A stretch of DNA of 64,000 bases from Sphingomonas sp. (GTDB lineage Bacteria > Pseudomonadota > Alphaproteobacteria > Sphingomonadales > Sphingomonadaceae): contig NZ_JAFKLZ010000002.1 of assembly GCF_017304615.1 (NCBI RefSeq), positions 806,001 through 870,000 on the forward strand, given 5' to 3'. The notes below the pieces were generated by a model. That model did no database searches. It was given only the letters and a program-made list of their open reading frames with translations, and was not told where the DNA came from. Each line of letters starts with the position of its first letter. The stretch's first letter is position 1. Positions 36,947-56,014 of this stretch are shown here, piece by piece. The position numbers were made by a program, and so were the translations under genes.

Positions 36947-37638
36947 TCCGCGGCCTCCATCATCGGCTCGTCCATCGCCAGCCGCTGCCCCGCGGGGAGC
37001 GCGACGGGCAGTGGGCGGTCGTCGCGGATCGGCAGGAAGCGCCCGCTCACGCCGTCGAGGCCGAGCACCTGACCGGCGTGGATGTCGACGAACCAGCCGT
37101 GCAGCGAAATCTCGCCACGCGCGATCCCGGCCGCGACCGACGGATGGGTGCGCAGGTGCGCGAGCTGGACAACGACGTTCTCCAGGCTTGCCGCGCGGAC
37201 CTTGTCCTTGTTGTCGAGCGGGCCGTAGCCCGCCTTCACGACGGATTCGGCGGCGTGGCTGTGGCGCAGCCAGGCGGCGACGTTGGGCATCCCCTCCAGC
37301 ATTTCGGGATTCATCAGCGCCTTCATCGCGCCGCAGTCGGAATGACCGCAGACGATGATGTCGCGCACGCCGAGCGCGGCGACGGCATATTCGACGGTCG
37401 ACGACACGCCGCCATTCTGCGTCGCGAACGGCGGGACGATGTTGCCGGCGTTCCGGCAGACGAACAGGTCGCCGGGGTCGGCCTGCATGATCAGCTCGGG
37501 GACGACACGGCTGTCGGCGCAGGAGATCATCAACGCCTTGGGGCTCTGTCCATGCGCCGCCAGCTTGGCATACAGGTCGTTGCGGCTGGGGAAGACCCGC
37601 TTCTCGAAATCGAATACACGCCCGATCAGGTCGTTCAC
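36943..37638 (-). CDS. Beta-class carbonic anhydrase
   Basis: This 231-residue enzyme interconverts CO2 and bicarbonate. Zinc ligands and the catalytic dyad are plain: SCADSRVVPE (Cys40, Asp42, Arg44) and CGHSDCGAMKAL (His99, Cys102). Flanking motifs GDLFVCRNAGNIVPP and SSTVEYAVAALGVRDIIVCGH are typical of the plant-type beta class. The start is GTG 37638, with GAGGAG eight bases upstream. It is translationally coupled to the SulP gene, forming a bicarbonate-handling pair. An inverted repeat TTTCTGC-N6-GCAGAAA lies 48 bases upstream of the start and may be an operator. Confidence 0.95.
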   Translation of the reverse strand: MNDLIGRVFDFEKRVFPSRNDLYAKLAAHGQSPKALMISCADSRVVPELIMQADPGDLFVCRNAGNIVPPFATQNGGVSSTVEYAVAALGVRDIIVCGHSDCGAMKALMNPEMLEGMPNVAAWLRHSHAAESVVKAGYGPLDNKDKVRAASLENVVVQLAHLRTHPSVAAGIARGEISLHGWFVDIHAGQVLGLDGVSGRFLPIRDDRPLPVALPAGQRLAMDEPMMEAAE

Positions 37639-40393: not shown

Positions 40394-41407
40394 ATGGCGA
40401 ACTCAGTTCCTCCCGCGGTCGATCGAGTTACCTTGGCGGACGTCGCGACGGTCGCGGGCGTTTCCAAGATTACGGTGTCCCGTGCATTGCGGGGCAGCGA
40501 ACTGGTCAAACCGGCCGTTCGAAAGCGTATCAGCGAAGTGGCCGCCCAGATGGGCTACCGCGTCAATCTGGCGGCGCGCGACCTGCGGCTGAAGCGTCGC
40601 ATGCGAATCGCGGTGGTAGTCGATATGAAGGCGAGCGACGACCGCCCGTTATACGATCCCTATCCGCTCGCGCTGCTGGGCGGAATCATGCAGGAATGCG
40701 CAGCCGCCGGCTTCGCGGTCGTGCTGACCACCAGCGACCCCAAGATGAATGCCGAGGCGATGGACACGAGTGGCGTCATCGTGCTTGGCCAGGGCGCGGA
40801 GCACGAGACGGTGAGGGCGCTGGCCGGACTTAACCTGCCGCTTGCCGTATGGGGGGCGGACGACGGCGTGGAAAACGAAATCGGCGCCGCGGTCGTCGGC
40901 AGCGACAACCGCCAGGGCGGGATACTGGCGGCGCAGCATCTTCAGCACCGCGGCTGCAAGCGTCTGGTGTTCCTCGGCGATACCCACCACGCCGAACTGG
41001 CTGATCGCGTCCACGGCTTTCGCGCCGGGATTCAGGCCGGAACCGAAATCGTGGCGACGCAAAGCGCCGATTTCACTCGCGAAGCGGGGCGCCGCGCGAT
41101 GCGGGAGGTGATCGAGGCCGGGATTTCCTTTGACGGCGTGTTCGCGGGAAGCGATCTGGTTGCGTTGGGCGCGATCGATGCCCTGCGCGAGGCGGGCGGC
41201 GCCCTTCGCCCCAATATCGCGATCGTCGGCTATGACGACACGCCGGCGGCGGCCGCCCATGCGCCGCGGCTCACCACCATCCGTCAGGATTGGACCGAGG
41301 GCGGCAGGCTGCTGGCCCGCACCTTGTTTGCGCGCCTGAGTCCCGATCGGTTCGCAGCGCCGCGTTCGCGAATCCTGCCCGTACAGCTTGTCGAAAGAGA
41401 GACTTAA
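40394..41407 (+). CDS. LacI-family transcriptional regulator of the sulfatase/trehalase locus
   Basis: This 337-residue protein has the LacI headpiece VTLADVATVAGVSKITVSRALRG, then VKPAVRKRISEVAAQMGYRVNLAA with the hinge helix, and a periplasmic-binding-protein-like effector domain (MRIAVVVDM, NRQGGILAAQHLQHRGCKRLVFLGD, FDGVFAGSDLVALGAIDALREAGG, IAIVGYDDTPAAAAHAPRLTTIRQD). Immediately after its stop lies a perfect inverted repeat whose halves are each centred on ATCGAT, the form LacI proteins bind. It therefore probably represses the following TBDR-sulfatase-esterase-MFS-trehalase genes and possibly itself. Enterobacterial TreR, the trehalose regulator, is also LacI-type; the inducer here is unknown. 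Confidence 0.93.
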   Translation: MANSVPPAVDRVTLADVATVAGVSKITVSRALRGSELVKPAVRKRISEVAAQMGYRVNLAARDLRLKRRMRIAVVVDMKASDDRPLYDPYPLALLGGIMQECAAAGFAVVLTTSDPKMNAEAMDTSGVIVLGQGAEHETVRALAGLNLPLAVWGADDGVENEIGAAVVGSDNRQGGILAAQHLQHRGCKRLVFLGDTHHAELADRVHGFRAGIQAGTEIVATQSADFTREAGRRAMREVIEAGISFDGVFAGSDLVALGAIDALREAGGALRPNIAIVGYDDTPAAAAHAPRLTTIRQDWTEGGRLLARTLFARLSPDRFAAPRSRILPVQLVERET

Positions 41408-41412
41408 TGGGA

Positions 41413-41455
41413 AAATGACATCGATAACATTTTTCGATTGTTATCGATGTCATTT
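41413..41455. promoter_or_regulatory. Double LacI-type operator: perfect 17-bp inverted repeat
   Basis: AAATGACATCGATAACA (41413-41429), nine bases, then TGTTATCGATGTCATTT (41439-41455), a perfect match. Each arm contains a 14-base near-palindrome centred on CG (ideal TGTTATCGATAACA, 12 of 14). The two centres are 23 bases apart, about two helical turns. It lies five bases past the lacI stop and about 80 bases before the TBDR start. As RNA it could also fold as a hairpin ending the lacI message. Confidence 0.8.
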
Positions 41456-41533
41456 GGCGATATTTCCCGCTTCAACCGCTCGGTCACGCCTGTCACCAGA
41501 ACAGTCGGGCCGGCATCGCAAGGAGGGGATGTT

Positions 41534-44044
41534 ATGAAATCGCGACTGTTCCTGCTGGCATCCACGGCCGCAATGGCGACGGCGATGCCTGCCTTCGCCA
41601 ACGACAAGGCCGACGGGGGAAAGACGCCGCAAACCAACGCCCAGGACAATGTCGGTGCGGCCGCCGCCGTCCCCGCGACGTCGGCTGACACGGGAGACGG
41701 GCAGGACGATATTGTCGTGACCGGCACCGCCATGTCGAGCGGCCTGAAGCGGCTCGACGCCGGTTTCTCGATCACCACGGTCGATGCCCAGACGATCCAG
41801 CGCACGACGCCGCTCAGCACCGCCGATGTGCTGAAGACCGTTCCCGGCACCTATATCGAATCGTCGGGCGGCGTGGCCGGTCTGCGTGTCGGCGTTCGTG
41901 GTTTCCCGATGAACGGGGGTGGTCAGTTTTCCACGGTCCAGCTCGACGGCGCCACGCTGTTTCCGCCGAATACCCTGGGCTTTATCGAGAGTTTCAGCCT
42001 GTTTCGCGTCGATGACACGGTCGAGCGGGTCGAGGTGCTGCGGGGTGGTCCCAGCCCGATCTTCTCCGCGGGCCAGCCGGGCATCACGCTGAATTTCATC
42101 CAGCGAACCGGGAAGGACGTTCCCGCGGGCAGCGCGCGCGTGACGGTCGGCGCCGAAGGTCTCTATCGCTTCGACGGCTTTGTCGGCGGCAAGATCGGTG
42201 AAGGCTGGTATGCGACGATCGGCGGTTTCTATCGAGTCAGCGACGGCGTCCGCAACCCGCAATATCGCGCCGATGACGGCGGTCAGATCAGCGCCACTCT
42301 GACGCGACGCTTCGACGACGGCCAGGTCACGGTCTGGGGCCGGCGGGTGAAGGACTCCAACATCTTCTTCTCCGGCGCGCCGTTATTGTCGTCGGCCGAC
42401 GGCAAGCTCAGCGTCTATCCCTATTTCGACCAGCGCAAGGATACGCTGGCCGGTGAGGACACCCGGCTGCTCACGTTCGAAACCACGCCCGGCTCGACCC
42501 CCGGCACGATCAGTCGCGACTTTTCCGACGGCCGCACCATCGATCTGACGCAGTTCGGCGGCAGTTTCGATTTCACGCCCGGTGAATGGCGGATCAGCGA
42601 CCGCATCGGCTATCTATCCGGCACCGCCAATACGCGGGCGATCTTCACCAGCGCCGTCCCGACCACCTTGAGCGCCTATATCGCCGGCCGCATCTCGGCG
42701 GTGAACGCGACGCCGGCGATCGTCACCGCTGGGGGCCTTGCAACCGCCGGAACGGCCCGCTTCAGCACATCGGGCACGGTGATCACCGATGGCAATCAAC
42801 CCGTCATCGTCGCCGGCTTCTGGTCGGTCGACAAGCATATCAAGACGTTCAGCAACGACCTGCGCATCAGCCGCCAGTTCGGCAACCACAGCCTGACGCT
42901 GGGGTCGTATCTGGCGACCCACGCGATCACCGACTTGTGGTACCAGGGCAATAACGCCCTGCTGGCGTTCGAGAACAATGCGCGGCGAATCGACCTGGTG
43001 CTGAACAACGGCGCCCAGATCACCAAGAACGGCTTCACCGGCTTCGCGACCAACAATTTCAGCGACAGCTTCAACGGCACCAATATCGCCGGGTTCCTGG
43101 CCGACGAATGGAAGATCAGCGACACGCTGCGGGTGGATGCCGGCATCCGCGTCGAGCATTACAAGGTGAGCGGCAGCGTCGGATTGGCGTCGAACGTCAA
43201 CCTGGATGGCAACGTCCTTACCGTCTACAATAACAGCGTGTCGGTGCTGAACGGCCAGACGCGCAGCTACGAATATTCGGGGACGCAATTATCCTATACC
43301 GCTGGCGCGAACTATTACCTGACGCCGCGGCTGACGACGTTCGTGCGGATCAATTCCGGGTTCCGCTTCCCCACGTTCGATGAAATCTTTGGCGGCTTCC
43401 GCACCGTCCAGAAGATCAAGCAGTATGAACTGGGGTTCAAGACGTCGCAGCGTTTCCTCGATGCGTCGCTGACCTTCTTCCGCAACGACTTTGTCGGCCA
43501 GACCTATTCGCAACAGATCGTCGATCCGGTGACGAACGCAATCACCACGGTCATCGCGGTGGCGGGATCGCGAACCTGGGGCGCCGAACTGGAAGGATCG
43601 CTCCGCCCGCTCGAAAACCTTTCGATCGACTTCAACGCGACGGCGTTCCGCGCGCGGTTCCGCGACATCAGCGCGGGCGTCGCGAGCGGCGTGCAGAACG
43701 GGTACAAGGTACCGCGCCAGCCCGATTTCCAGGCGCGGATCGGCCCCGCTTACACCATTCCGTTCAGCGGCGGGTCGGCGACCTTGTTCGGCGCCTACAC
43801 GCATGTCGGGTCGCGTTTCTCCGACATCCAGAACCTGCAGCTGCTGCCGGCCTATGACACGTTCGATCTGGGCGCGTCGGTCAAGGTCGGCCGGATCGAG
43901 TTCCAGGTGACCGCGAACAATTTGACCAACACGCTGGCCCTGACCGAAGGCAATGCCCGCATCATCGGTACGACCGGCGGATCGGTGATCGCGCGCTCCA
44001 ATTTCGGGCGCTCGTTCCAGGCGACGGCGGTCTACCGGTTCTGA
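41534..44044 (+). CDS. TonB-dependent receptor of the sulfatase/trehalase locus
   Basis: This 836-residue receptor starts at ATG 41534 with AGGAGGGG upstream. Signal peptide MKSRLFLLASTAAMATAMPAFA, TonB box QDDIVVTGTAMSS, plug motifs GVAGLRVGVRGFPMNGGG, STVQLDGATLFPP, VERVEVLRGGPSPIFSAGQPGITLNFI and a barrel ending FGRSFQATAVYRF. The plug is of the siderophore/catecholate-like type by shape, yet the genes that follow encode sugar enzymes. As first gene after the LacI operator it should bring the locus's substrate through the outer membrane. An intrinsic terminator directly after its stop would let it be made in excess over the downstream enzymes. Confidence 0.93.
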   Translation: MKSRLFLLASTAAMATAMPAFANDKADGGKTPQTNAQDNVGAAAAVPATSADTGDGQDDIVVTGTAMSSGLKRLDAGFSITTVDAQTIQRTTPLSTADVLKTVPGTYIESSGGVAGLRVGVRGFPMNGGGQFSTVQLDGATLFPPNTLGFIESFSLFRVDDTVERVEVLRGGPSPIFSAGQPGITLNFIQRTGKDVPAGSARVTVGAEGLYRFDGFVGGKIGEGWYATIGGFYRVSDGVRNPQYRADDGGQISATLTRRFDDGQVTVWGRRVKDSNIFFSGAPLLSSADGKLSVYPYFDQRKDTLAGEDTRLLTFETTPGSTPGTISRDFSDGRTIDLTQFGGSFDFTPGEWRISDRIGYLSGTANTRAIFTSAVPTTLSAYIAGRISAVNATPAIVTAGGLATAGTARFSTSGTVITDGNQPVIVAGFWSVDKHIKTFSNDLRISRQFGNHSLTLGSYLATHAITDLWYQGNNALLAFENNARRIDLVLNNGAQITKNGFTGFATNNFSDSFNGTNIAGFLADEWKISDTLRVDAGIRVEHYKVSGSVGLASNVNLDGNVLTVYNNSVSVLNGQTRSYEYSGTQLSYTAGANYYLTPRLTTFVRINSGFRFPTFDEIFGGFRTVQKIKQYELGFKTSQRFLDASLTFFRNDFVGQTYSQQIVDPVTNAITTVIAVAGSRTWGAELEGSLRPLENLSIDFNATAFRARFRDISAGVASGVQNGYKVPRQPDFQARIGPAYTIPFSGGSATLFGAYTHVGSRFSDIQNLQLLPAYDTFDLGASVKVGRIEFQVTANNLTNTLALTEGNARIIGTTGGSVIARSNFGRSFQATAVYRF

Positions 44045-44055
44045 TACCTCCCCTG

Positions 44056-44083
44056 GCGCGGGGCTAGTCCCCGCGCTTTTTTT
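44056..44083 (+). terminator. Rho-independent terminator between TBDR and sulfatase genes
   Basis: GCGCGGGG, loop CTAGT, CCCCGCGC, then seven T. The stem is a perfect eight pairs of G and C. It begins 11 bases past the TBDR stop and ends 18 bases before the sulfatase start, so it should reduce rather than abolish expression of the genes downstream unless they have their own promoter. Confidence 0.88.
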
Positions 44084-44101
44084 CACGACACGGAGGCAGG
44101 C

Positions 44102-45520
44102 ATGAAACGCAGGCATTTTCTCGGTGCGGCGACTGGCGCGGCGCTGGGCCTGGCGCCTGCCACGCGCGCGCTGTCGGCCGGCATCGACCGGGCAAAGCGG
44201 CGCAACGTCCTCCTCATCGTGAGCGACGATCAGGGGATGGATCTCGGATGTCTCGGCGTCGCGGTTCAAACGCCCAATCTCGACGCCCTTGCGCAGCAGG
44301 GCACCCGGTTCGATCAGGCCTATGCGGCCGTGTCGTCGTGCAGCTCGAGCCGCGCGGTGGTGTACACGGGACTCTATACGCACCAGAACGGCATGTACGG
44401 CCTGGCCCATGACGCCCATAATCAGGGGCTGCGCGACGGCATCGAAACCCTGCCCTACTGGCTGAAGAAGGCTGGCTATGCCACCGCTCTGGTCGGCAAG
44501 AAGCACGTCAAGCCCGAAGGCGCCTTTCCCTATGACGCGGAACTGGCGCCCGAACGCGCCGGGATTCGCGACGTGGCCTTGTTGTCGGACGCGGTCGAAC
44601 TGTTCCTGCGCGGCATCGGCGATGCGCCGTTCTTCGTCACGGTCGGCTTCAGCGACCCCCACCGCGCGCCAGTAAACTTCGGCAACAACCAGCCCTGGCC
44701 GCGGGTCAAGGACGTGCGGTACGATCCGGCCAAGGTGACGGTGCCGTCGCACTTGCCCGACCTGCCGGCGGTGCGCGGCGATCTGGCGCAATATTACGAA
44801 TCGCTCAGCCGGCTCGATGACGGGGTGGGCATGATCCGCGCGGCGATCGAACGGTGCGGCCGCGCCGACGACACGCTGATCGTTTTCCTCAGCGACAATG
44901 GCCGCCCCTTTCCGGGCGCCAAGACTAACCTCTACGACCCCGGTCTCCACTTGCCGTTGATCGTGCATGCACCGGGCTTGCGCGGCGGCGCGACCAGCGA
45001 CGCGATGGTCAGCTGGATCGACATCGCGCCAACCATTCTGGAATGGACCGGCGCCGCTGGTCCCGCTTACCCGCTGCCTGGGCGGTCGGTGCTGCCGTTG
45101 CTCGGCGAACGCGGCAAGCCGGGTTGGGACATGGTCTTCGCCAGCCACGAATTCCACGAAATCGACCAATATTATCCAATGCGCGCGATCCGTACCCGAA
45201 CCCGCAGCTATATCGAGAACCTGGCGTGGCAATTGCCGTATCCGATCGCCGGCGACGTGGCGGGATCGGACAGCTGGAAGGCGATCGCCGCCGATCCCCG
45301 GACCCGCATCGGCAAGCGCACCCAGGCCGCATACCGAAACAGGCCGGCGCGCGAATTCTACGATCTCGAGCGGGATCCCGACGAAGTGGTCAATCTGGGG
45401 TCGGGCCGGGCGCGCGCGGCTGAGCGCGATGCCCTGGCGGCGAAGCTTACAGCTTTTCGCAAAGCAACCGGCGACCCCTGGACCGAAGGCCTGGCCGCCA
45501 CCGGCAAGGCCGAGGGCTGA
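44102..45520 (+). CDS. Tat-exported sulfatase, N-sulfoglucosamine sulfohydrolase-like (family S1)
   Basis: This 472-residue protein starts MKRRHFLGAATGAALG, a twin-arginine signal; GGAGG precedes ATG. It closely follows the human SGSH (heparan N-sulfatase) pattern as I recall it: NVLLIVSDDQGMDLG (metal-binding Asp42, Asp43), SSCSSSRAVVYTGLYTHQNGMYGL, VGKKHVKPEG, FSDPHRAP, LSDNGRPFPGAKTNLYDPG, YPMRAIRTRTRSYIENL and FYDLERDPDE. Cys80 is the expected formylglycine precursor, but the signature reads C-S-S-S-R where most sulfatases have C-x-P/A-x-R. It should remove sulfate from a sugar in the periplasm. Downstream genes (esterase, sugar MFS, trehalase) hint at a sulfated disaccharide rather than heparan. 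Confidence 0.9.
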   Translation: MKRRHFLGAATGAALGLAPATRALSAGIDRAKRRNVLLIVSDDQGMDLGCLGVAVQTPNLDALAQQGTRFDQAYAAVSSCSSSRAVVYTGLYTHQNGMYGLAHDAHNQGLRDGIETLPYWLKKAGYATALVGKKHVKPEGAFPYDAELAPERAGIRDVALLSDAVELFLRGIGDAPFFVTVGFSDPHRAPVNFGNNQPWPRVKDVRYDPAKVTVPSHLPDLPAVRGDLAQYYESLSRLDDGVGMIRAAIERCGRADDTLIVFLSDNGRPFPGAKTNLYDPGLHLPLIVHAPGLRGGATSDAMVSWIDIAPTILEWTGAAGPAYPLPGRSVLPLLGERGKPGWDMVFASHEFHEIDQYYPMRAIRTRTRSYIENLAWQLPYPIAGDVAGSDSWKAIAADPRTRIGKRTQAAYRNRPAREFYDLERDPDEVVNLGSGRARAAERDALAAKLTAFRKATGDPWTEGLAATGKAEG

Positions 45521-45523
45521 CGG

Positions 45524-46552
45524 ATGTCGCTGGGGAGGCGTGGCAAGCGGCTGTTCGTAATCGGTATGCTGCTCGCGGCCCCGGCCGGGGCGCAAGTGAG
45601 CAATTCCTCGTCGCTGCCGCCCTCGAACCAGTTGAGCGCGGCTGCGCTCGTCGTGCTCGATCGGATGCGCGCCGCCACGGCGCCCGACGCGATCAAGGGC
45701 GACATCACGCGGCAACGCGCCTTCTACCAGAAGTATAACGACGACCGGCTGGCCGAGATGCGCCGACACTTCGCGACACGCGAGCGGCGTGAGACGATCA
45801 ACGGCGTCACGGTCGATACGGTCGAACCGGTGGCGGGCGTCTCCCGCGCAAATGCTCGCCGCGTGCTCATCAACGTGCATGGTGGCGCGTTCATGTGGGG
45901 ATCGGGCAGCGGTGCGCTGGTCGAAGCCATTCCCGTCGCCGCGACGATGCGGATACGCGTCGTCACGGTCGATTACCGCCTGGCCCCCGAACACCGTTAT
46001 CCGGCCGCGTCGGAAGATGTCGCCGCCGTGTATCGCGCCCTGCTGAAACGCTATGCGGCCGCCAATATCGGTATCTATGGCTGTTCGGCCGGCGGCGTCA
46101 TCACCGCGCAGACGACCGCGTGGATCCGCCGTGAGGGTCTGCCCCGGCCGGGTGCGATCGGCACGTTCTGCGGCACCGGCGCGCCCTATTCCGGCGACAG
46201 TCCCTATCTTGCCGGTACGGCTCCCCCCGGATCGCGCCTGCCCGATACCGTGCCAAGCCTCTATATGTCCGGCGTTCCGGCGAGCGACGCCGCCGCCTAT
46301 CCGCTGAGCAATGACGCCGAAATCAGGGCGATGCCGCCGACCCTGGTGCTGGCGGGCGGGCGCGACTTTGCGGTGAGCGCGTTGACGCTGGCGCATCGCC
46401 GGCTCGCCGCCGCCGGCGTGCCGTCCGAACTCTACCTGTTCGACGGCCTGCCGCACGCCTTCTTCGTGTGGTCCGACATGCCCGAATCGAACGAAGCCTA
46501 TCGCCTGATCGCGCGCTTCTTCGAACGCTATCTCGGCAACGGCGCCCGATGA
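45524..46552 (+). CDS. Exported alpha/beta-hydrolase-3 (HSL-type) esterase
   Basis: This 342-residue protein has a signal peptide (RLFVIGMLLAAPAGAQ). HSL-family marks are NVHGGAFMWGSGSG (oxyanion hole), VVTVDYRLAPEHRYPAASEDV, the nucleophile elbow GIYGCSAGG, LVLAGGRDF with the acidic residue and GLPHAFFVW with the catalytic His. In most relatives the elbow is GDSAG; here it is GCSAG. It starts three bases after the sulfatase stop and overlaps the MFS gene by ATGA, so it belongs to the same unit. It probably removes acetyl or longer acyl groups from the imported sugar in the periplasm. Confidence 0.88.
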   Translation: MSLGRRGKRLFVIGMLLAAPAGAQVSNSSSLPPSNQLSAAALVVLDRMRAATAPDAIKGDITRQRAFYQKYNDDRLAEMRRHFATRERRETINGVTVDTVEPVAGVSRANARRVLINVHGGAFMWGSGSGALVEAIPVAATMRIRVVTVDYRLAPEHRYPAASEDVAAVYRALLKRYAAANIGIYGCSAGGVITAQTTAWIRREGLPRPGAIGTFCGTGAPYSGDSPYLAGTAPPGSRLPDTVPSLYMSGVPASDAAAYPLSNDAEIRAMPPTLVLAGGRDFAVSALTLAHRRLAAAGVPSELYLFDGLPHAFFVWSDMPESNEAYRLIARFFERYLGNGAR

Positions 46553-47784
46553 ACCGGACGCGCATCATCGTCGCGCTGGCGCTGACCTACGCCGTGCTCG
46601 GCATTCTGATGAACAGCGTCGGCGCGGTTATCCTGCAATCGATCCGCCATTTCGACGCGACCAAGCCGATGGGATCGACGCTGGAAGCGTGCAAGGACCT
46701 GTCGGTCGTCGCCGCGTCGTTCGCGCTGGCGACGCGGATTCCATCGATCGGTTATCGCCGGTCGCTGATCGGCGTCATGGCCGTGATGGGTGTCGCGTGC
46801 GTGGCGGCGTCGTTCGCCGATCGCTTCCTGGCGATGCAGGCCTTGTTCGTCGTCACGGGATTGAGTTTCGGCGTCGCCAAGGTCGCGACCTACGCCACGA
46901 TCGGACTGCTGGCGCGCGATCCCGCCGACCATGCCAGCGTCACCGGCGTCATAGAGGGCGTGTTCATGATCGGCTTGCTCGCCGGGGTATGGCTGTTCGG
47001 CTGGTTCGTCGGCGGCGATCATTCCGCCCGGGACTGGCTGCATGTCTATTGGGTGATCGCTGCGGCATGTGGGGTGCTCGTCATGGCGTGGCTGGGCACG
47101 CCGCTCGACGAGAGCGCGGCGGTTGCGCCCGATACGCCCAAGGCGGACTGGAGCGATATGGCGCGGCTTGCCGTCCTGCCGGCGACGGTCGCGGTGCTGG
47201 TCGGCCTGTTCCTCTATGTCCTGATCGAACAGGGGATCGGCACGTGGCTGCCGACCTTCAACAACCAGGTTCTGCACCTGCCGCCGGCGATGAGCGTCCA
47301 GATGTCGAGCATCTTCGTCGGATCGCTGGCGGTCGGGCGGCTGGCGTCGGGGCTGGCGCTGCGCCGGTTCGACTGGCTGGCGGTGTTGCTCGCCTGTCTG
47401 GCGGGTATCGCGCTGATGATCCTCGTCTCCCTGCCGCTGGCGGCGGGCGCCGGGCATGGTGCGATTGCCGGATGGCGCGATGCGCCGCTCGCCGCCTATC
47501 TCTTCCCGTTGCTCGGCATCTTCCTCGCGCCGATTTACCCGACCCTCTGTTCGATAGCACTCAGTAACCTCCCCCGCCCCCGCCACGCCGCGATGATGGG
47601 GTTGATTGTCATCTTCTCGGCGCTCGGCGGGACGCTTGGCTCGTTCTTGACCGGGTTGCTGTTTCAGAAAGTCGCCGGGGCGTTCGCCTTTTACGCCACC
47701 CTGTTGCCGGTCGCGCTGATCGCCATGGCATTGCCGATCATCAGACGCCGGCAGCGAGCGATGCAGGTCGGTGCGACAGCATGA
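46549..47784 (+). CDS. MFS sugar transporter (FucP/glucose-galactose porter-like)
   Basis: This 411-residue inner-membrane protein has about twelve segments. The N-terminus (IIVALALTYAVLGILMNSVGAVI, LEACKDLSVVAASFALA) and the late PLLGIFLAPIYPTLCSIALSNLP plus AAMMGLIVIFSALGGTLGSFLTGLLF are typical of FHS-type sugar/proton symporters such as FucP. It should carry the desulfated, deacylated sugar into the cytoplasm. ATG 46549 overlaps the esterase stop, and its own stop overlaps the trehalase start, both as ATGA, so all four genes are translationally linked. With a cytoplasmic trehalase next, trehalose is the likely cargo. Confidence 0.87.
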   Translation: MNRTRIIVALALTYAVLGILMNSVGAVILQSIRHFDATKPMGSTLEACKDLSVVAASFALATRIPSIGYRRSLIGVMAVMGVACVAASFADRFLAMQALFVVTGLSFGVAKVATYATIGLLARDPADHASVTGVIEGVFMIGLLAGVWLFGWFVGGDHSARDWLHVYWVIAAACGVLVMAWLGTPLDESAAVAPDTPKADWSDMARLAVLPATVAVLVGLFLYVLIEQGIGTWLPTFNNQVLHLPPAMSVQMSSIFVGSLAVGRLASGLALRRFDWLAVLLACLAGIALMILVSLPLAAGAGHGAIAGWRDAPLAAYLFPLLGIFLAPIYPTLCSIALSNLPRPRHAAMMGLIVIFSALGGTLGSFLTGLLFQKVAGAFAFYATLLPVALIAMALPIIRRRQRAMQVGATA

Positions 47785-49310
47785 GCCTGTCCGTGTCGCC
47801 GCCTCCTTCGGAATTGTACGCCGAGCTGTTTTCCCAAGTGCAGGAAGCAGCGTTGTTTGCGGATTCGAAGACCTTCGCCGACGCTGATCCCCGCCGTGAT
47901 CCCGCCGCCATCCTAGCGGACTGGCACCGTGATCCGCCCCGCGATCCGGCGGCAATGCGAGCCTTTGTCCACGCCAATTTCCTGTTGCCGGGCCCCGACA
48001 ATGCGGTTCCCCTAAATTGGCAACCGCTGACCCAACACATCTCGGCGTTGTGGCCGATGCTGACCCGCGAACCGCAGCAGCCTCCGCCAGGGTCCTCGTT
48101 GTTGCCGTTGCCGCGCCCGCATGTGGTCCCCGGCGGAAGGTTCCGCGAACTATATTATTGGGACAGCTACTTCACTATGCTGGGCCTCGCGCGATCGGGG
48201 CGGCAGGATCTGGTCGAGGATATGGTCGTCAACTTCGGCAGCCTGCTCGACCGTTTCGACCGGATACCCAACGGGACGCGCAACTATTATCTCGGGCGTT
48301 CGCATCCCCCCGTTTTCTACCTCATTGCAAGCCTGTCACAGGATCAGTCGGTCGATGCGCGCCGGCGACGGCTGCGTTGGATGATGGCGGAACATCGTTT
48401 CTGGATGGCATGCGCAGGTGACCTCGCGCCGGGCAATGAAGCTGGCCGCGTCGTGCGACTTGCCGACGGCGCGTTGCTCAACCGCTATTGGGACGACCAC
48501 ACTGCCCCGCGCGACGAATCCTGGCGCGAGGACATAGCCCTGGCCAGGGAAACGCCTGGCAGGGTGGCGGCAGAGTTATGGCGCGACTTGCGCGCCGCGG
48601 CCGAAAGCGGGTGGGATTTCAGTTCGCGCTGGTTGGGCGACCGACGGTCGTTGGGTACGATCCGCACCACGCGGCTGCTGCCCGTCGATTTGAACGCGCT
48701 GCTTTACGGTCTTGAAGATATGGTGGCCCGGGAGGCGGACACGCTCGGCGACCCGCAAACCGCGACGCTGTTTGCGACGTATGCCGCGGCGAGGCGGCGG
48801 GCTATCGCATCGCATCTGTGGAACGCGGGGTCGGGCTTTTATGCCGATTTCGATCTTGATGTCGCCGCGCCCAGCGATCAGCCGACGGCGGCAATGGTTT
48901 TCCCCTTGTTCACCGGGGCGGCGGAGCCAGGACGGGCGTCAAGCACTGCAACGGCGCTGGCGGCGCTGGTCGGGCAGGGAGGGCTGCTGACGACACTCGA
49001 TCGCACAGGTCAGCAATGGGATGCGCCGAACGGCTGGGCGCCGTTGCAGTGGATCGCCGTGAAAGGCCTGGAAAACTATGGAGAACAGGCGCTGGCCGAC
49101 CAGATAGCGCTGCGCTGGCTTACGACTGTGGGCGACCATTATCGGGAAGCCGGCCGGCTTCTGGAGAAATACGATGTGGAAAAGGGAGGCGCCGGCGGTG
49201 GCGGTGAGTATGCGTCGCAGACCGGATTCGGCTGGACCAATGGCGTGACACTCGAGTTGCTGGCGCGATCTGCCATGTCAGATCCAGGGACTGATCACTG
49301 CTCGCTGTGA
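47781..49310 (+). CDS. Trehalase, glycoside hydrolase family 37, probably cytoplasmic
   Basis: This 509-residue enzyme splits trehalose into two glucose units. Both trehalase signatures are complete: PGGRFRELYYWDSYF (signature 1) and QWDAPNGWAPLQW (signature 2). It also has the glycine-rich GGAGGGGEY with the catalytic base Glu, and ESGWDFSSRW with the catalytic acid Asp, plus VDLNALLYGLEDM. No signal peptide is evident (MSLSVSPPPSELYAELF), which makes it TreF-like in location, though the pattern also fits TreA. It is the last gene of the LacI-controlled unit, overlapping the MFS gene by four bases. This strongly points to trehalose as the core of the locus's substrate. The symbol is left blank because treA and treF cannot be told apart. 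Confidence 0.95.
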   Translation: MSLSVSPPPSELYAELFSQVQEAALFADSKTFADADPRRDPAAILADWHRDPPRDPAAMRAFVHANFLLPGPDNAVPLNWQPLTQHISALWPMLTREPQQPPPGSSLLPLPRPHVVPGGRFRELYYWDSYFTMLGLARSGRQDLVEDMVVNFGSLLDRFDRIPNGTRNYYLGRSHPPVFYLIASLSQDQSVDARRRRLRWMMAEHRFWMACAGDLAPGNEAGRVVRLADGALLNRYWDDHTAPRDESWREDIALARETPGRVAAELWRDLRAAAESGWDFSSRWLGDRRSLGTIRTTRLLPVDLNALLYGLEDMVAREADTLGDPQTATLFATYAAARRRAIASHLWNAGSGFYADFDLDVAAPSDQPTAAMVFPLFTGAAEPGRASSTATALAALVGQGGLLTTLDRTGQQWDAPNGWAPLQWIAVKGLENYGEQALADQIALRWLTTVGDHYREAGRLLEKYDVEKGGAGGGGEYASQTGFGWTNGVTLELLARSAMSDPGTDHCSL

Positions 49311-49502
49311 TTACAGCATAACACCGAGATGATGTTCGCGGGCTACGTGATTGCGGGCACCGTGGCTGCGCAACCCGTCGCCCGAGGTGATCCGCGTTGT
49401 GGCGCATCCAGTCTGACAAGGCTGGCAGACTTGTAACGGTAGAGACCGGCGCACTACTGAAGGGGGGTGGTGATTGCGCGGGGGTCCGGAAGTCTGGCCG
49501 GC

Positions 49503-50630
49503 ATGACTGAGTTTTCTGACAAAGGCCCTCCTGTTTTCGGTACAACGCCCGGACTCGAGAAGCGGACGGGACTGGACGGCGTTGCGGTGAAGCGCCTGCT
49601 CGGGGGCGCCGTGTTGAGGGGGAAGGATCCGCGCGCGTTGCTGCAGCAGGCGGGAATTGATCCGCGCGTCTATGGCAACGTCCATGCAGCGATCGACGGC
49701 CGCGAACTGTTCCGACTGGTTCGACAAGCGCAAGTCGCACTCGACGATTCGTTCTTTGGCTTTTTCGCGGAGCGCTTTCGCTTAGCGCTCGAATTGGAGC
49801 GCACGCTGACCTATCTGCACTGCGAGACGTTCGGCGAATCAATCCGGGTCAGCATCCGCTTCACCCAAGCCTTGTCGGAGGACATCGGGCCGCAGCTCAT
49901 CGAAGACCGCGCCGGCCTGAAACACGTCTGTGTCTATCACACGGTCGATGGCGTCGATCGCGACATTTTCGTCTGGCTGCGTTTCGTTTGGATATTCCAG
50001 TGGTTCAGCTGGCTGATCGGCCGTCCACTCCGCCTGCGTTCCGTTTCCGTCCGCGCCTCCCGCCCGGTGCAGGCGAATGGTTTCGACCGGTTCGCCGTTT
50101 TCGGCTGTCCGATAGAATATGACGCGCCGGTCGACGCGCTCTGCTACGATCGGGCCGATCTCGGTGCCCGGCTCGTCCACCATACGCTCGCGGAATTCGA
50201 CCAGTACAATGCCAGCAACCCAGACTGGTTTGCGACGCCGATCGGCCGCTCGACCTGGCGCGCGCAGACCGAGCATGTGCTCGCCGACTTTCAACGCGCG
50301 CGCATCTGGTCGGTCTCGATCGATACCGTGGCCGAGCGGTTGCGCAGCCGCCCGCGCCGGCTCCGGCGCGACCTAGCGCGCGAGGGGGAAAGTTTTCAGC
50401 ACATCCGCACGCGCCTGCGCGGCGAACTCGCGGGCGCGTACCTGCTGGCGACCGAACTGCCGATCACAGAGGTGGGCTACCGCGTCGGGTTCAGCGAACC
50501 GGGCAGCTTCACGCGCAACTTCACCGAATGGGCGGGCGTGACACCGTCCGATTATCGCACGCGCTATAAGTCGGACGGCGCGCGCGTGACCGCGGCGACG
50601 TTGCTGCTCGGAGACCAGGCTCCCGCTTAA
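49503..50630 (+). CDS. AraC-family regulator with arabinose-binding-type N-terminal domain
   Basis: About 375 residues. The N-terminal part (LLQQAGIDPRVYGN, ELFRLVRQAQVALDDSFFGFF, LRLRSVSVRAS, FGCPIEYDAP) is the domain called Arabinose_bd in regulators such as OruR. The C-terminal AraC HTH pair shows SIDTVAERLRSRPRRLRRDLAREGESFQHI and LPITEVGYRVGFSEPGSFTRNFTEWAGVTPSDYR. I start at ATG 49503; GTG 49467 or 49470 directly after a GGGGGG run is possible. It precedes the TBDR-ligase-dehydrogenase-MFS-esterase operon by 114 bases and is its likely activator. Relatives often govern fatty-acid, lipase or amino-acid genes. Confidence 0.88.
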   Translation: MTEFSDKGPPVFGTTPGLEKRTGLDGVAVKRLLGGAVLRGKDPRALLQQAGIDPRVYGNVHAAIDGRELFRLVRQAQVALDDSFFGFFAERFRLALELERTLTYLHCETFGESIRVSIRFTQALSEDIGPQLIEDRAGLKHVCVYHTVDGVDRDIFVWLRFVWIFQWFSWLIGRPLRLRSVSVRASRPVQANGFDRFAVFGCPIEYDAPVDALCYDRADLGARLVHHTLAEFDQYNASNPDWFATPIGRSTWRAQTEHVLADFQRARIWSVSIDTVAERLRSRPRRLRRDLAREGESFQHIRTRLRGELAGAYLLATELPITEVGYRVGFSEPGSFTRNFTEWAGVTPSDYRTRYKSDGARVTAATLLLGDQAPA

Positions 50631-50636
50631 CGTGAC

Positions 50637-50651
50637 TGACCAATCTGGTCA
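50637..50651. promoter_or_regulatory. Inverted repeat between araC-type gene and TBDR
   Basis: TGACC, five bases, GGTCA, lying 94 bases before the TBDR start. It may be a regulator or RNA-polymerase-proximal site for the operon. AraC proteins more often use direct repeats, so the binder is uncertain. Confidence 0.4.
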
Positions 50652-50744
50652 CTTCGGTTAAATATCCCTGTCATCCCGGCCATCGCCAGAACCGCGTCGG
50701 ATCGACGACGATGCCTCCCAATAAAAAAGCGTGGGAGAGGATAG

Positions 50745-53408
50745 ATGATCGCGACTTGGAAGCTTCGTAGGCGGATTGCACTGTCCGGCACGTCCGCGCT
50801 GGCGGCCGTGCTGTGCATGGCCGGGCCGGCATCCGCCCAGACCGCGAGCGCCGCCCCGCAGACCACCCCTCCGTCATCGGCGCAGGCGGACGACGCCAAT
50901 GCGCCGCAGGACACCGACATCGTCGTCACCGGCACCAGCATTCGCGGCGTGCCACCGACGGGGTCCAATCTTCTCAGGGTCACGCGCGACGACATCAAGC
51001 TGATCGGCGCGACCACGACCGCCGAACTGCTGGCGACCGTGCCGCAGCTCAACAGCTTCAACACCGCGCCGCGCACCAGCAACGGTGGGCTGGGATCGTT
51101 CGCCCCCGGGCTACGCGGCTTGCCGTCGAGCGCCACGCTCCCTCTGATGAACGGGCACCGCCTGATTTCGGGCAGCACGCAGCAGACCAACCCGGACTAC
51201 CCGTTTCTCCCCGAACTCGCCATCGAGCGCGTCGAAATCGTCGCGGATGGCGCCTCGGCGATCTACGGGTCGGACGCCGTTGCCGGGGTCGTGAACTTCA
51301 TCACGCGGAAGCCGTTTTCCGGCGTCGAGGCGACTGCGCGCTATGGCATGGCGGACGACTATCGGACGGTCAGCGCCGGGGCGATCGTCGGAAAGGACTG
51401 GGGCAGCGGATCGGTCTCGCTGTCCTATCAATTCACCACCAACAACAACATCACCGGGGCCGACAGGCGATACCGGACGCTCGATTTCCGGCCGGCCGGC
51501 GGTGTCGACACGCGATCGGCGGTCTGCCCGCTGGCTAACGTCAACCTTTTCCTCGGCACGATCTACGCCGCGCCGACCCTGGCGCCCGGGACCAACTATT
51601 GTGATCCGCGCGGGCCGGTCGATCTGGTCCCGACCAATCGCATGCACACCGGTTTCCTGTCCGCGCGTCAGACGCTTGCGCCGAACGTGACGCTGTGGGG
51701 CGAGCTGCTCTATACCGATCGCAAGGATACGGTGCAGGCCGCGCTGCCGGGGCAGACATTTGTCCTCATCCTGCCGACCAACCCGTTCTATCGCGCCCCG
51801 CCGGGCACCGCCGCCGGCTACGAATATGTCGATTTCCGGCCGGACAATCTCGTCGGCGCTGACCATTTCGACCAGACGTATCGTGTCAGGAGCGGCAATT
51901 CGTCGGTCGGGGTCGATGCCCGGCTCGGCGCGTTCAACCTGACCGTCTCGGGCACCGCCGACTGGTCGCGCAACGACACGTTCCAGCCGGGGATCAACAC
52001 GACCGCGCTGACGGCGGCGGCCAGCGGCACCACTACGGCGACGGCGCTGGACCCGTTCGGGACCGGCACCAGCCCGGCCGTCGTCGCCGCCATCCTGAAC
52101 AATCCCACGACGTTCGTGAACCATCAGCGCACGTTGCTGGGCGCGATCAAGATCGACGGTCCGCTTGCCGAATTGCCCGGCGGCGCGATCAAGATCGCCG
52201 CGGGCGCCGAATATCGCCGCGAAACCTATTCGCAGCGCGGGCAGAGCGGAGGGGTCGGCTTCCCCGAAAATCTCGATCGCAACATCGCGTCGGTGTACGG
52301 CGAACTGTTCGTGCCGATCTTCGGCGACGGCAATGCCGCGCCGTTGATGCGCCGGCTCTCGCTCTCTCTTTCGGCACGGTATGACCATTACAGCGATTTC
52401 GGATCGACCACGAACCCGAAGTTCGGCGTCGTGTGGGAGCCGGTCGACGGCTTGTCGCTGCGCGGCACGTACGGCCGGTCGTTCCGCGCGCCAGGTCTGC
52501 GCGATCTGGGGTCGACGGTCGGCTCCTATTATTCGGCGGCCGGGCTCGTCGATGCGTTCGGCGTGCGCGATCCTTCGCGTGGAGCGGCGCAGGTCAACTC
52601 GATGCTGCTGATCGGCGGCAACAAGTCGCTGCAACCGGAAAAGGCGAGAACCTTCTCGTTCGGTGCCGATCTGCGGCCGCATTTCCTGCCCGGCTTCAGC
52701 GCGAGCGCGACGTTCTACGACATCAGCTATAACAACGTGATCGGCTCGGCCTATGGCGTGGGTTCGCTGTTGTTCACCGATCCGACCTTCGCGACGCGCG
52801 TCATCCGCAACCCGACCGCCGCACAGGTTTCGGCGGCGCTTGTCGGGACGGTGCCATTTTACTTCACCTTCGCGGCCGTGCCGACGATCGGCAACCTGCT
52901 CGACTTGCGCCAGGGCAATTTCGGCACCCGCAAGACCAACGGCCTCGACTTCGACGTCAATTACCGTCGGGCAATCGGGTTCGGCACGGTGTTTGCGGGC
53001 GCGGCGGGTAATTACATCTTCAAATACGAAACGCAGCTCTCAGCCACATCGCCCGCCAGCGATTCGCTACAGGCCGGCGTGTCGCGGACGACCTTGCGCA
53101 CGACGCTTGGTCTGACGGCGGGTCCCGTGACGATCGCGAACTTCGTCAATCATCGTAGCGGGGTGACCGGTGCGTTCGCCACGCCGACGGGCACGGGCAT
53201 CTACACCGCCAAGGGGTATACGACGGTCGATCTGCGGCTGACCGTCCGGCTGCCCGATGTCGGGATTGCCAAGGGAACCGAGCTGTCGGCGCAGGTCAAC
53301 GATCTGTTCGATGCGACGCCGCCGTATTTCCCGGCGACCGACGGGATCGGCGGCAGTTACAACGCGATCGGGCGTTACGTCGCAATCAACCTTCGGAAAA
53401 AGTTCTAG
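50745..53408 (+). CDS. TonB-dependent receptor of the acyl-ester operon
   Basis: This 887-residue receptor starts at ATG 50745 with GGAGAGGA upstream. Signal peptide (LAAVLCMAGPASAQ), TonB box DTDIVVTGTSIRG, plug with TAELLATVPQLNSFN, LRGLPSSATLPLMNGHRLI, IERVEIVADGASAIYGSDAVAGVVNFIT, and barrel ending NAIGRYVAINLRKKF. It belongs to the long-plug group also seen at 13643. Leading an operon for an acyl-CoA ligase, dehydrogenase, MFS and two esterases, it should import an ester-containing compound. The gene is 113 bases from the next start, which leaves room for a short leader but I see no terminator. Confidence 0.93.
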   Translation: MIATWKLRRRIALSGTSALAAVLCMAGPASAQTASAAPQTTPPSSAQADDANAPQDTDIVVTGTSIRGVPPTGSNLLRVTRDDIKLIGATTTAELLATVPQLNSFNTAPRTSNGGLGSFAPGLRGLPSSATLPLMNGHRLISGSTQQTNPDYPFLPELAIERVEIVADGASAIYGSDAVAGVVNFITRKPFSGVEATARYGMADDYRTVSAGAIVGKDWGSGSVSLSYQFTTNNNITGADRRYRTLDFRPAGGVDTRSAVCPLANVNLFLGTIYAAPTLAPGTNYCDPRGPVDLVPTNRMHTGFLSARQTLAPNVTLWGELLYTDRKDTVQAALPGQTFVLILPTNPFYRAPPGTAAGYEYVDFRPDNLVGADHFDQTYRVRSGNSSVGVDARLGAFNLTVSGTADWSRNDTFQPGINTTALTAAASGTTTATALDPFGTGTSPAVVAAILNNPTTFVNHQRTLLGAIKIDGPLAELPGGAIKIAAGAEYRRETYSQRGQSGGVGFPENLDRNIASVYGELFVPIFGDGNAAPLMRRLSLSLSARYDHYSDFGSTTNPKFGVVWEPVDGLSLRGTYGRSFRAPGLRDLGSTVGSYYSAAGLVDAFGVRDPSRGAAQVNSMLLIGGNKSLQPEKARTFSFGADLRPHFLPGFSASATFYDISYNNVIGSAYGVGSLLFTDPTFATRVIRNPTAAQVSAALVGTVPFYFTFAAVPTIGNLLDLRQGNFGTRKTNGLDFDVNYRRAIGFGTVFAGAAGNYIFKYETQLSATSPASDSLQAGVSRTTLRTTLGLTAGPVTIANFVNHRSGVTGAFATPTGTGIYTAKGYTTVDLRLTVRLPDVGIAKGTELSAQVNDLFDATPPYFPATDGIGGSYNAIGRYVAINLRKKF

Positions 53409-53521
53409 CGGGGGAACGCTGTCGCAGGAGCGCACGGTCAGCCGTGCTCTCCGGCGGCAGCGGGCTGACCCGTTGCGGTTTCGACGCCGAGTTCCTTCAA
53501 GAGTGCCAAGCAGTATATCGG

Positions 53522-56001: not shown

Positions 56002-56014
56002 TCAGGAGGCGGAT

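What the first reader, a model, noticed from the sequence alone, without database searches (positions are those of the whole stretch)
40394..49310. Candidate utilisation system for sulfated and/or acylated trehalose
Seen: LacI regulator, operator, TBDR, Tat-exported SGSH-like sulfatase, exported HSL-type esterase, sugar MFS and a signal-less GH37 trehalase; the last four are spaced by 3 bases or overlap as ATGA. Established: GH37 is specific for trehalose; sulfotrehalose is an osmolyte of haloalkaliphilic archaea, and mycobacterial sulfolipids are acylated trehalose sulfates. Inference: the sulfatase and esterase strip sulfate and acyl groups in the periplasm, the MFS imports trehalose and the trehalase splits it. 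I know of no described locus with this exact combination.
Basis: partly seen in the sequence, partly recalled or inferred. Interest (0 to 1): 0.82.

Follow-up and report, generated by a model that had tools for sequence, protein, structure and literature searches.

The report
Uptake locus for sulfate-tagged trehalose
A Sphingomonas-type bacterium carries a set of genes that looks built to take up the sugar trehalose when it carries sulfate and perhaps ester groups, strip those groups off and eat the sugar; the same gene set, reshuffled, is found in other bacteria, but what it really eats has not been tested here.

Summary
In detail: LacI, twin operator, TonB receptor, Tat-type sulfatase, exported esterase, MFS and a GH37 without signal peptide, spaced as stated. 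The sulfatase has orthologs (63% identity or more) in 22 of 295 genus genomes, own genome included, and 14 more (54-77%) in Sphingobium, Novosphingobium, Rhodanobacter and others. In 22 of these 36 loci a trehalose-type enzyme lies nearby: GH37, or in its place a GH65 phosphorylase with beta-phosphoglucomutase. The MFS accompanies 13 of 13 enzymes without signal peptide and 0 of 9 exported GH37s, so it probably imports the intact disaccharide. Operator TGNNATCGATNNCA is present in 7 of 7 loci with this LacI type, 0 of 7 with another. Trehalose is thus well supported. The sulfatase is SGSH/S1_8-like; described S1_8 enzymes act on carbon 2, and the arginine marking the N-sulfatase is lysine in 40 of 40 sequences: this points to 2-O-sulfated trehalose, the known sulfotrehalose. 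Acylation is inferred only from the esterase. Against: 13 of 36 loci lack such an enzyme, six of them showing the sulfatase alone; some add a 6-sulfatase-like enzyme and GH92; a sister locus has esterase-MFS-GH37 without sulfatase. No activity is shown. A new variant of a TonB-type sugar locus.

The parts
40394..41407 (+). LacI-family regulator of the locus
   Evidence: Pfam LacI and Peripla_BP_3; relatives at 44-69% identity in six other loci, each with the same operator motif
41416..41429 (+). operator copy 1, TGACATCGATAACA
   Evidence: only two places in the whole genome match TGWYATCGATRWCA, this one and the next
41439..41452 (+). operator copy 2, inverted, 23 bases from copy 1
   Evidence: L034 and L063 also have two copies, 22 bases apart
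41534..44044 (+). TonB-dependent outer-membrane receptor
   Evidence: Pfam Plug and TonB_dep_Rec_b-barrel; a relative lies in the stretch read in 30 of 36 ortholog loci, directly beside the sulfatase (under 300 bases) in 26
44055..44084 (+). hairpin with T-run between receptor and sulfatase, a possible partial terminator
   Evidence: 9-pair stem, 8 G-C; fold energy -25.8 kcal/mol for the stretch, z -1.8, 9 of 200 shuffles as low; comparable hairpins of other sequence in some relatives
44102..45520 (+). Tat-type exported formylglycine sulfatase, SGSH/S1_8-like, predicted exo-2-O-sulfatase
   Evidence: human SGSH 292 bits, S1_8A 154 bits; active-site residues kept, K274 where SGSH has R282
45524..46552 (+). 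exported esterase, GCSAG-motif hormone-sensitive-lipase type
   Evidence: NCBIfam NF058650 506 bits over cut-off 410; PDB PMGL2 495 bits
46549..47784 (+). MFS transporter, predicted importer of intact trehalose
   Evidence: Pfam MFS_1; relatives in 13 of 13 loci with a trehalose-type enzyme without signal peptide and 0 of 9 with an exported GH37
47781..49310 (+). cytoplasmic GH37 trehalase
   Evidence: Pfam trehalase 454 bits, E. coli periplasmic trehalase 537 bits; SGWDFSSRW and GGGGEY present, no signal peptide

Best explanation
A LacI-controlled, TonB-type utilisation locus for trehalose that carries sulfate, most likely on carbon 2 (2-sulfotrehalose or a glycolipid built on it), and probably ester groups. 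The receptor takes the compound into the periplasm; the Tat-exported sulfatase, after formylglycine maturation, removes the 2-O-sulfate; the exported esterase removes acyl groups; the MFS imports the bare trehalose; the cytoplasmic GH37 splits it into two glucoses; trehalose or a derivative releases LacI from the twin operator. Shown by sequence: the genes, their order, the operator and the conserved association. Inferred: every enzyme activity, the sulfate position, the acyl group and the inducer.
For: Gene set and spacing. 22 of 295 genus genomes carry the sulfatase ortholog; in 13 of these 22 a GH37 gene lies within 6.1 kb of it (plus the window itself), whereas GH37 (E 1e-90 or better) occurs in 166 of 295 genomes, mostly once; a single-copy gene would fall that close in well under 1% of cases (my arithmetic; genomes are related, so no p-value). 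One further genus genome has GH65 plus beta-PGM instead. Of 14 extra ortholog loci from the named genome scan, 4 have GH37 and 4 have GH65 plus PGM, one of these with a distant GH37 match too. The tree needs 12 changes for the five states ('none' included; shuffled mean 20.3), and well-supported branches force at least 4 for cytoplasmic GH37 and 3 for GH65, so the link was kept through repeated gains, losses or swaps. MFS 13 of 13 versus 0 of 9. Operator motif in 7 of 7 loci with LacI at or above 44% identity, 0 of 7 with the other LacI type, 34-39%. Esterase in 20 of 36 sulfatase loci (plus the window). S1_8 enzymes are described as acting on the 2-position (Gal-2-S, Xyl-2-S, GlcNS) in PMC12549532 (passages and section 6); sulfotrehalose has its sulfate on C2 (PMC1224877, passages). 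SGSH Arg282, Lys in O-sulfatases (PMC4014121, passages), is Lys in 40 of 40 aligned sequences (matched to SGSH by my reading of the alignment). A formylglycine-generating enzyme (235.7 bits) is in the genome.
Against: 13 of 36 sulfatase orthologs have no GH37 or GH65 in the stretch read, and six of these (L040, L041, L048, L079, L082, L085) show no other part of the system by these queries; a fourteenth, L080, has only a GH65 of the kojibiose-hydrolase side. The window's own genome has a second esterase-MFS-GH37 set without sulfatase, so that trio does not by itself imply sulfate. GH65 specificity is unresolved: nearest solved structures are maltose and kojibiose phosphorylases. 13 of 36 loci add an S1_11-like second sulfatase and 7 a close GH92 alpha-mannosidase, which plain sulfotrehalose does not need. 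Lys274 is one residue; the bacterial N-sulfamidase could not be compared (its paper is not held). The genome scan used two short peptide patterns and misses relatives without them. No expression, growth or enzyme data exist here.
Confidence: 0.6

Rival explanations
1. The locus serves a larger decorated trehalose (a glycolipid or oligosaccharide with a trehalose core that carries sulfates, acyl groups and further sugars); free sulfotrehalose is only an intermediate.
For: Relatives add an S1_11-like sulfatase (13 of 36), GH92 (7 of 36, 8 with a distant one in L080), or GH1 and a further hydrolase (L036); a sister locus with GH1, two esterases, MFS, GH37 and in part GH42 is in the own genome and five others. 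The esterase was not seen beside plain trehalase genes: 0 of 9 cytoplasmic-type GH37 loci without GH1 (14 examined) and 0 of 6 exported-type loci.
Against: The window's own locus has no other glycosidase than GH37; GH92 and S1_11-like genes were not found in the stretch read around its nearest relative L034.
Confidence: 0.25
2. It is a plain trehalose uptake locus; sulfatase and esterase are accessory enzymes with unrelated substrates, kept for general scavenging.
For: The esterase-MFS-GH37 trio exists without sulfatase in the own genome; 8 of 14 cytoplasmic-type GH37 loci examined show GH37 alone by these queries; six sulfatase orthologs stand alone.
Against: Receptor and sulfatase are directly adjacent in 26 of 36 loci while the trehalose enzyme is swapped; the same operator motif goes with the set in Alpha- and Gammaproteobacteria; a plain disaccharide hardly needs a sulfatase directly behind its receptor.
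Confidence: 0.08
3. It is a locus for a sulfated polysaccharide (mannan- or heparan-like) and the trehalase is a passenger.
For: The sulfatase resembles SGSH; GH92 plus S1_11-like sulfatase in 6 relatives resembles enzymes described for a diatom C6-sulfated mannan (PMC13063451, passages).
Against: The glycosidases recognised in the gene maps are of exo-acting kinds and no lyase was recognised (not every neighbour gene was scanned against Pfam); GH37 or its GH65 replacement recurs in 22 of 36; R282 to K speaks against N-sulfate.
Confidence: 0.07

Closest known systems
S1_8 sulfatases (human SGSH; lambda-carrageenan S1_8A, B, C of Pseudoalteromonas distincta U2A)
   Same: Same sulfatase type by sequence; described members act on a 2-sulfate or 2-sulfamate of a sugar; active-site residues kept
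   Different: Here linked to trehalose enzymes, not to galactan or heparan enzymes; Lys replaces the SGSH Arg282
E. coli periplasmic trehalase TreA (GH37)
   Same: Full-length match (537 bits, residues 6-495) with the same motifs
   Different: No signal peptide; sits behind a TonB receptor, a sulfatase and an MFS
TonB-dependent carbohydrate utilisation loci of Proteobacteria (receptor, exported enzymes, MFS, LacI; the general plan is recalled)
   Same: Overall plan
   Different: I found no described example for a sulfated trehalose in the held open library (searches; listings and some passages seen)
Sulfotrehalose of haloalkaliphilic archaea and trehalose-2-sulfate of mycobacterial sulfolipids
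   Same: Predicted substrate class; sulfate on C2
   Different: Only the producer side was described in what I read; the present locus would be the consumer side

Membership tests
S1_8 formylglycine sulfatase | closest solved relatives are S1_8 members | tested here: met
   SGSH 292 bits and S1_8A 154 bits rank first; next other sulfatase (5g2v) 107 bits; but S1_8B (100) and S1_8C (66) rank below it
S1_8 formylglycine sulfatase | formylglycine cysteine and metal/sulfate ligands | tested here: met
   C80, R84, D42, D43, D265, K133, H135, H187 in 40 of 40, N266 in 39 of 40; correspondence to SGSH
S1_8 formylglycine sulfatase | formal placement in the SulfAtlas clade | not testable with these tools
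   the SulfAtlas profiles are not held
N-sulfoglucosamine sulfohydrolase (SGSH) | Arg282 in place of the O-sulfatase Lys | tested here: not met
   K274 in 40 of 40; one residue only
GH37 trehalase | full-length GH37 match with catalytic motifs | tested here: met
   Pfam 454 bits, E. coli trehalase 537 bits; SGWDFSSRW (276) and GGGGEY (472); that these hold the catalytic residues is recalled
GH37 trehalase | trehalose-splitting activity | not testable with these tools
   needs an assay
GCSAG hormone-sensitive-lipase esterase | score over the curated cut-off and motif | tested here: met
   506 bits against 410; GCSAG at 186, HGG at 119
TonB-type sugar utilisation locus | one regulator with an operator at the receptor/enzyme unit, conserved in relatives | tested here: met
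   motif in 7 of 7 loci with this LacI type; binding itself not tested

The most novel reading that the evidence does not exclude
This is the consumer side of sulfotrehalose: a dedicated, repeatedly reshuffled catabolic system, in Alpha- and Gammaproteobacteria, for trehalose-2-sulfate and its acylated or glycosylated relatives. It would mean that sulfated trehalose is a common enough nutrient outside salt lakes and mycobacteria for several lineages to keep regulated genes for it.
Probability: 0.4. Interest if true: 0.8.

Novelty: new variant of a known kind. Interest (0 to 1): 0.66.

Why it matters
Producers of 2-sulfotrehalose are described (salt-loving archaea, and mycobacterial sulfolipids built on trehalose-2-sulfate), but in the searches named I found no described way in which another organism takes the compound apart. 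A conserved, regulated gene set with a predicted exo-2-O-sulfatase next to a trehalase gives a direct, cheap test, could extend S1_8 to glucose-2-sulfate, would hint at overlooked sources of sulfated trehalose, and may yield a tool enzyme for trehalose-2-sulfate.

Tried and rejected
AlphaFold2 on the sulfatase with the 22-row alignment gave mean pLDDT 65.3 and poor confidence around the active site; I ran no fold search on it. GH65 substrate from solved structures: nearest are maltose and kojibiose phosphorylase, no decision; NCBIfam gave only GH65 matches below their cut-offs. MFS against solved structures: nothing at E 0.01. The loose operator motif is not specific to the locus in the own genome (7 places); only the stricter pattern is. 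One motif in L135, away from any such LacI, is taken as chance. Stf0-like sulfotransferases (PF09037) are in 9 of 101 genus genomes sampled, not in the own genome, and in 0 of 14 control genomes, so without a positive control; the family is broader than trehalose sulfotransferases (recalled); no conclusion. The 18 more distant loci (27-49%) were left out of the 36; among them only L093 has a GH65 hit beside the sulfatase. A first gene caller was poor and was replaced. In one search four rows were read in a wrong frame; one search repeats the count.
Full report
WHAT IS THERE. The window lies at G000:C8:806001-870000 of a 3.34-Mb genome. The locus runs LacI (40394-41407), two operator copies (41416-41429, 41439-41452), TonB receptor (41534-44044), sulfatase (44102-45520), esterase (45524-46552), MFS (46549-47784), GH37 (47781-49310), all on the + strand. 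The next genes (AraC-type regulator at 49467, second receptor, acyl-CoA ligase, then by eye MFS and esterase genes) look like another unit.

PARTS. The sulfatase has an RR start, the motif CSSSR and the ligands of the family; the genome has a formylglycine-generating enzyme. The esterase passes the curated cut-off of the GCSAG hormone-sensitive-lipase family. GH37 matches E. coli periplasmic trehalase over residues 6-495 but starts at the mature domain without a signal peptide. The operator is an inverted pair; the strict pattern occurs only here in the genome, the loose one at five further places.

IS THE COMBINATION CHANCE? In 295 genomes of the genus the sulfatase has orthologs at 63% identity or more in 22, the own genome included. 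I read 16-19 kb around the 21 others and mapped the parts with tblastn (recount). GH37 is within 6.1 kb of the sulfatase in 13 of 22; GH37 as such occurs in 166 of 295 genomes at E 1e-90, mostly once. A given gene falls that close to another in well under 1% of cases in a 4-Mb genome (my arithmetic; the genomes are related, so this is not a p-value). A scan of 84,980 species genomes, which used two short peptide patterns and so misses relatives without them, gave 44 loci: 12 are the same loci as before, 14 are new orthologs at 54-77%, 18 are more distant (27-49%) and left out. Of the 14 new ones, 4 have GH37 (L064, L068, L073, L076), 4 have a GH65 phosphorylase-type enzyme with beta-PGM (L063, L081, L083, L084, the last with a distant GH37 match too), one (L080) has only a GH65 of the kojibiose-hydrolase side, and 5 have none. 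In all, 22 of 36 have GH37 or GH65 plus PGM; 23 of 36 if L080 is counted. Other parts over the same 36, window included: receptor 30 (directly beside the sulfatase in 26), esterase 20, MFS 13, S1_11-like second sulfatase 13, close GH92 7. Relatives of the receptor were counted by similarity to the window's; L041 and L079 have other receptor-like genes by eye.

WHY TREHALOSE. First, GH37, whose known members are trehalases (recalled), is replaced at the same locus by GH65 plus beta-phosphoglucomutase in G224, S. colocasiae, two Rhodanobacter and one further Rhodanobacteraceae genome; trehalose is a substrate known in both families (recalled). Second, GH37 comes in two forms. The form without a clear signal peptide (8 loci) always has the MFS, as do the 5 GH65 loci (in L035 the MFS is cut by the end of the stretch); the form with a signal peptide (9 loci) has none of this MFS, and one of these, L037, has a sugar porter and a ROK-family gene instead. 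Signal peptides were judged by eye from the N-termini; a simple hydropathy score alone overlaps slightly (up to 1.96 without, from 1.87 with). This pattern is what is expected if the MFS carries the intact disaccharide. Third, the tree of 40 sulfatases needs 12 changes for the five states, 'none' included, with at least 4 for cytoplasmic GH37 and 3 for GH65 forced by well-supported branches; taken alone, cytoplasmic GH37 is hardly more clustered than shuffled labels (49 of 500 as low), and the tree warns of long branches in the outgroup and at L085. So the association has been kept through several gains, losses or swaps. Fourth, TGNNATCGATNNCA stands next to LacI, or before MFS or GH65, in 7 of 7 loci whose LacI is at least 44% like the window's (window, L034, L063, L064, L081, L083, L084; 11 sites) and in 0 of 7 with the other LacI type, 34-39% (L035, L042, L043, L045, L049, L052, L054); elsewhere in the 1.73 Mb of neighbourhoods scanned (duplicates included) there is one site, in L135. 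None of this proves GH65's substrate: its nearest solved relatives are maltose and kojibiose phosphorylases.

WHY SULFATE ON CARBON 2. The best solved relatives of the sulfatase are human SGSH (292 bits) and the lambda-carrageenan enzyme S1_8A (154 bits). SGSH is placed in S1_8 in PMC5066984 (passages). The carrageenan paper (PMC12549532, passages and section 6) describes S1_8A, B and C as galactose-2-O-sulfatases and notes xylose-2-sulfate and N-sulfoglucosamine activities in the subfamily. Sulfotrehalose carries its sulfate on C2 (PMC1224877, passages). The SGSH structure paper (PMC4014121, passages) names Arg282 as the residue that is Lys in O-sulfatases; the aligned residue here, by my reading of the alignment, is Lys274, in 40 of 40 sequences, while the residues proposed there to bind GlcNS (His368, Asp401; His352 and Asp385 here) are kept in 40 of 40. 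So the pocket looks like one for a gluco-type terminal sugar with an O-sulfate at C2. This is inference from family and residues, not an assay.

WHY PERHAPS ACYL GROUPS. The esterase is in 20 of 36 sulfatase loci. To see whether it simply follows trehalases, I read 20 GH37 loci without the sulfatase beside them, chosen from the list: the 14 best-scoring of the cytoplasmic type outside the sulfatase genomes, and 6 of the exported type (three of these from genomes that have the sulfatase elsewhere). Of the 14, five (L118-L122) have two esterases, MFS, GH37 and GH1, one has MFS and GH37 with a receptor, eight have GH37 alone by these queries; the six exported-type loci have no esterase, one (L136) has GH92 and a receptor. 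The esterase therefore goes with decorated-trehalose loci, sulfated or with GH1, in this sample, and not with plain trehalases. What acyl group it removes is unknown.

HOW IT LIKELY WORKS. Receptor uptake, periplasmic desulfation and deacylation, MFS import, cytoplasmic cleavage, LacI release by a trehalose derivative. The hairpin and T-run between receptor and sulfatase may lower enzyme expression relative to the receptor; it is only modestly more stable than shuffles (z -1.8), and the scan found fewer terminator-like sites in the region than in shuffles (4 against 8.1).

WHAT SPEAKS AGAINST. 13 of 36 sulfatase orthologs have no GH37 or GH65 in the stretch read; six of them (L040, L041, L048, L079, L082, L085) show no other part by these queries, and L044 ends at a contig border just beyond its esterase. 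The own genome has a second set (GH42, hydrolase, GH37, MFS, two esterases, two GH1) without sulfatase (L060). The S1_11-like sulfatase and GH92 in other loci resemble enzymes for C6-sulfated mannan (PMC13063451, passages), so some relatives probably handle more than sulfotrehalose. I found no paper on uptake or breakdown of sulfated trehalose by such loci in searches of the held open library (listings, and passages of a few papers); subscription journals are mostly missing there.

SOURCES IN NATURE. Sulfotrehalose is described from haloalkaliphilic archaea and, acylated, from Mycobacterium tuberculosis (PMC1224877, passages). A Rhodococcus genome paper lists trehalose 2-sulfotransferase and papA2 (PMC9229178, passages), and papA2 is named in a non-tuberculous mycobacterium (PMC13095810, passages), so soil actinobacteria are possible producers. 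This is a lead, not evidence.

VERDICT. New variant of a known kind of locus.

Noticed in passing
L060 (G000:C1:1442471-1461889), also L118-L122: A second locus in the own genome, wholly or in part in five others: GH42, alpha/beta hydrolase, GH37 (69%), MFS (74%), esterase (80%), second esterase, GH1 twice, second hydrolase; no sulfatase found. Looks like a locus for acylated, beta-glycosylated trehalose.
   Followed up: partly
L061 (G000:C1:1461900-1480243): Next to it: LacI, by eye an MFS, glycerate 2-kinase, receptor and a glucosylglycerate-hydrolase-like enzyme (331 bits, below the cut-off of 550), perhaps for a glycerate-based compatible solute.
   Followed up: partly
window 44055-44084; L034, L049 (by script); L035, L043, L052, L054 (by eye): A hairpin, in some cases with a T-run, between receptor and sulfatase, of different sequence in each locus; a possible way to make more receptor than enzyme.
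   Followed up: partly
L035, L038, L042, L044, L046, L047, L050, L051, L052, L054, L068, L073, L076: A second, S1_11-like sulfatase (nearest solved relatives: mucin-desulfating and GlcNAc-6-sulfatase) near the first; six of these loci, and L053 without it, also have GH92. Why a trehalose locus would need a mannosidase is unexplained.
   Followed up: partly
L136 (G168): GH92 (80%), a receptor and an exported GH37 together without the sulfatase.
   Followed up: no
window 44338-44355: The formylglycine motif is CSSSR here; 32 of 40 relatives have Pro and 8 Ser at the middle position.
   Followed up: no
L093: A Clostridiales MAG has a 36% relative of the sulfatase directly beside a GH65 gene (35%), possibly the same pairing in another phylum.
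   Followed up: no
window 49467-60632: A neighbouring unit: AraC-type regulator, second TonB receptor, acyl-CoA ligase and, by eye, an MFS, a carboxylesterase and a tannase-like protein; looks like uptake of an ester or aromatic compound.
   Followed up: no
window 35426-37638: Carbonic anhydrase next to a SulP-type transporter (Pfam Pro_CA and Sulfate_transp), perhaps bicarbonate rather than sulfate uptake.
   Followed up: no
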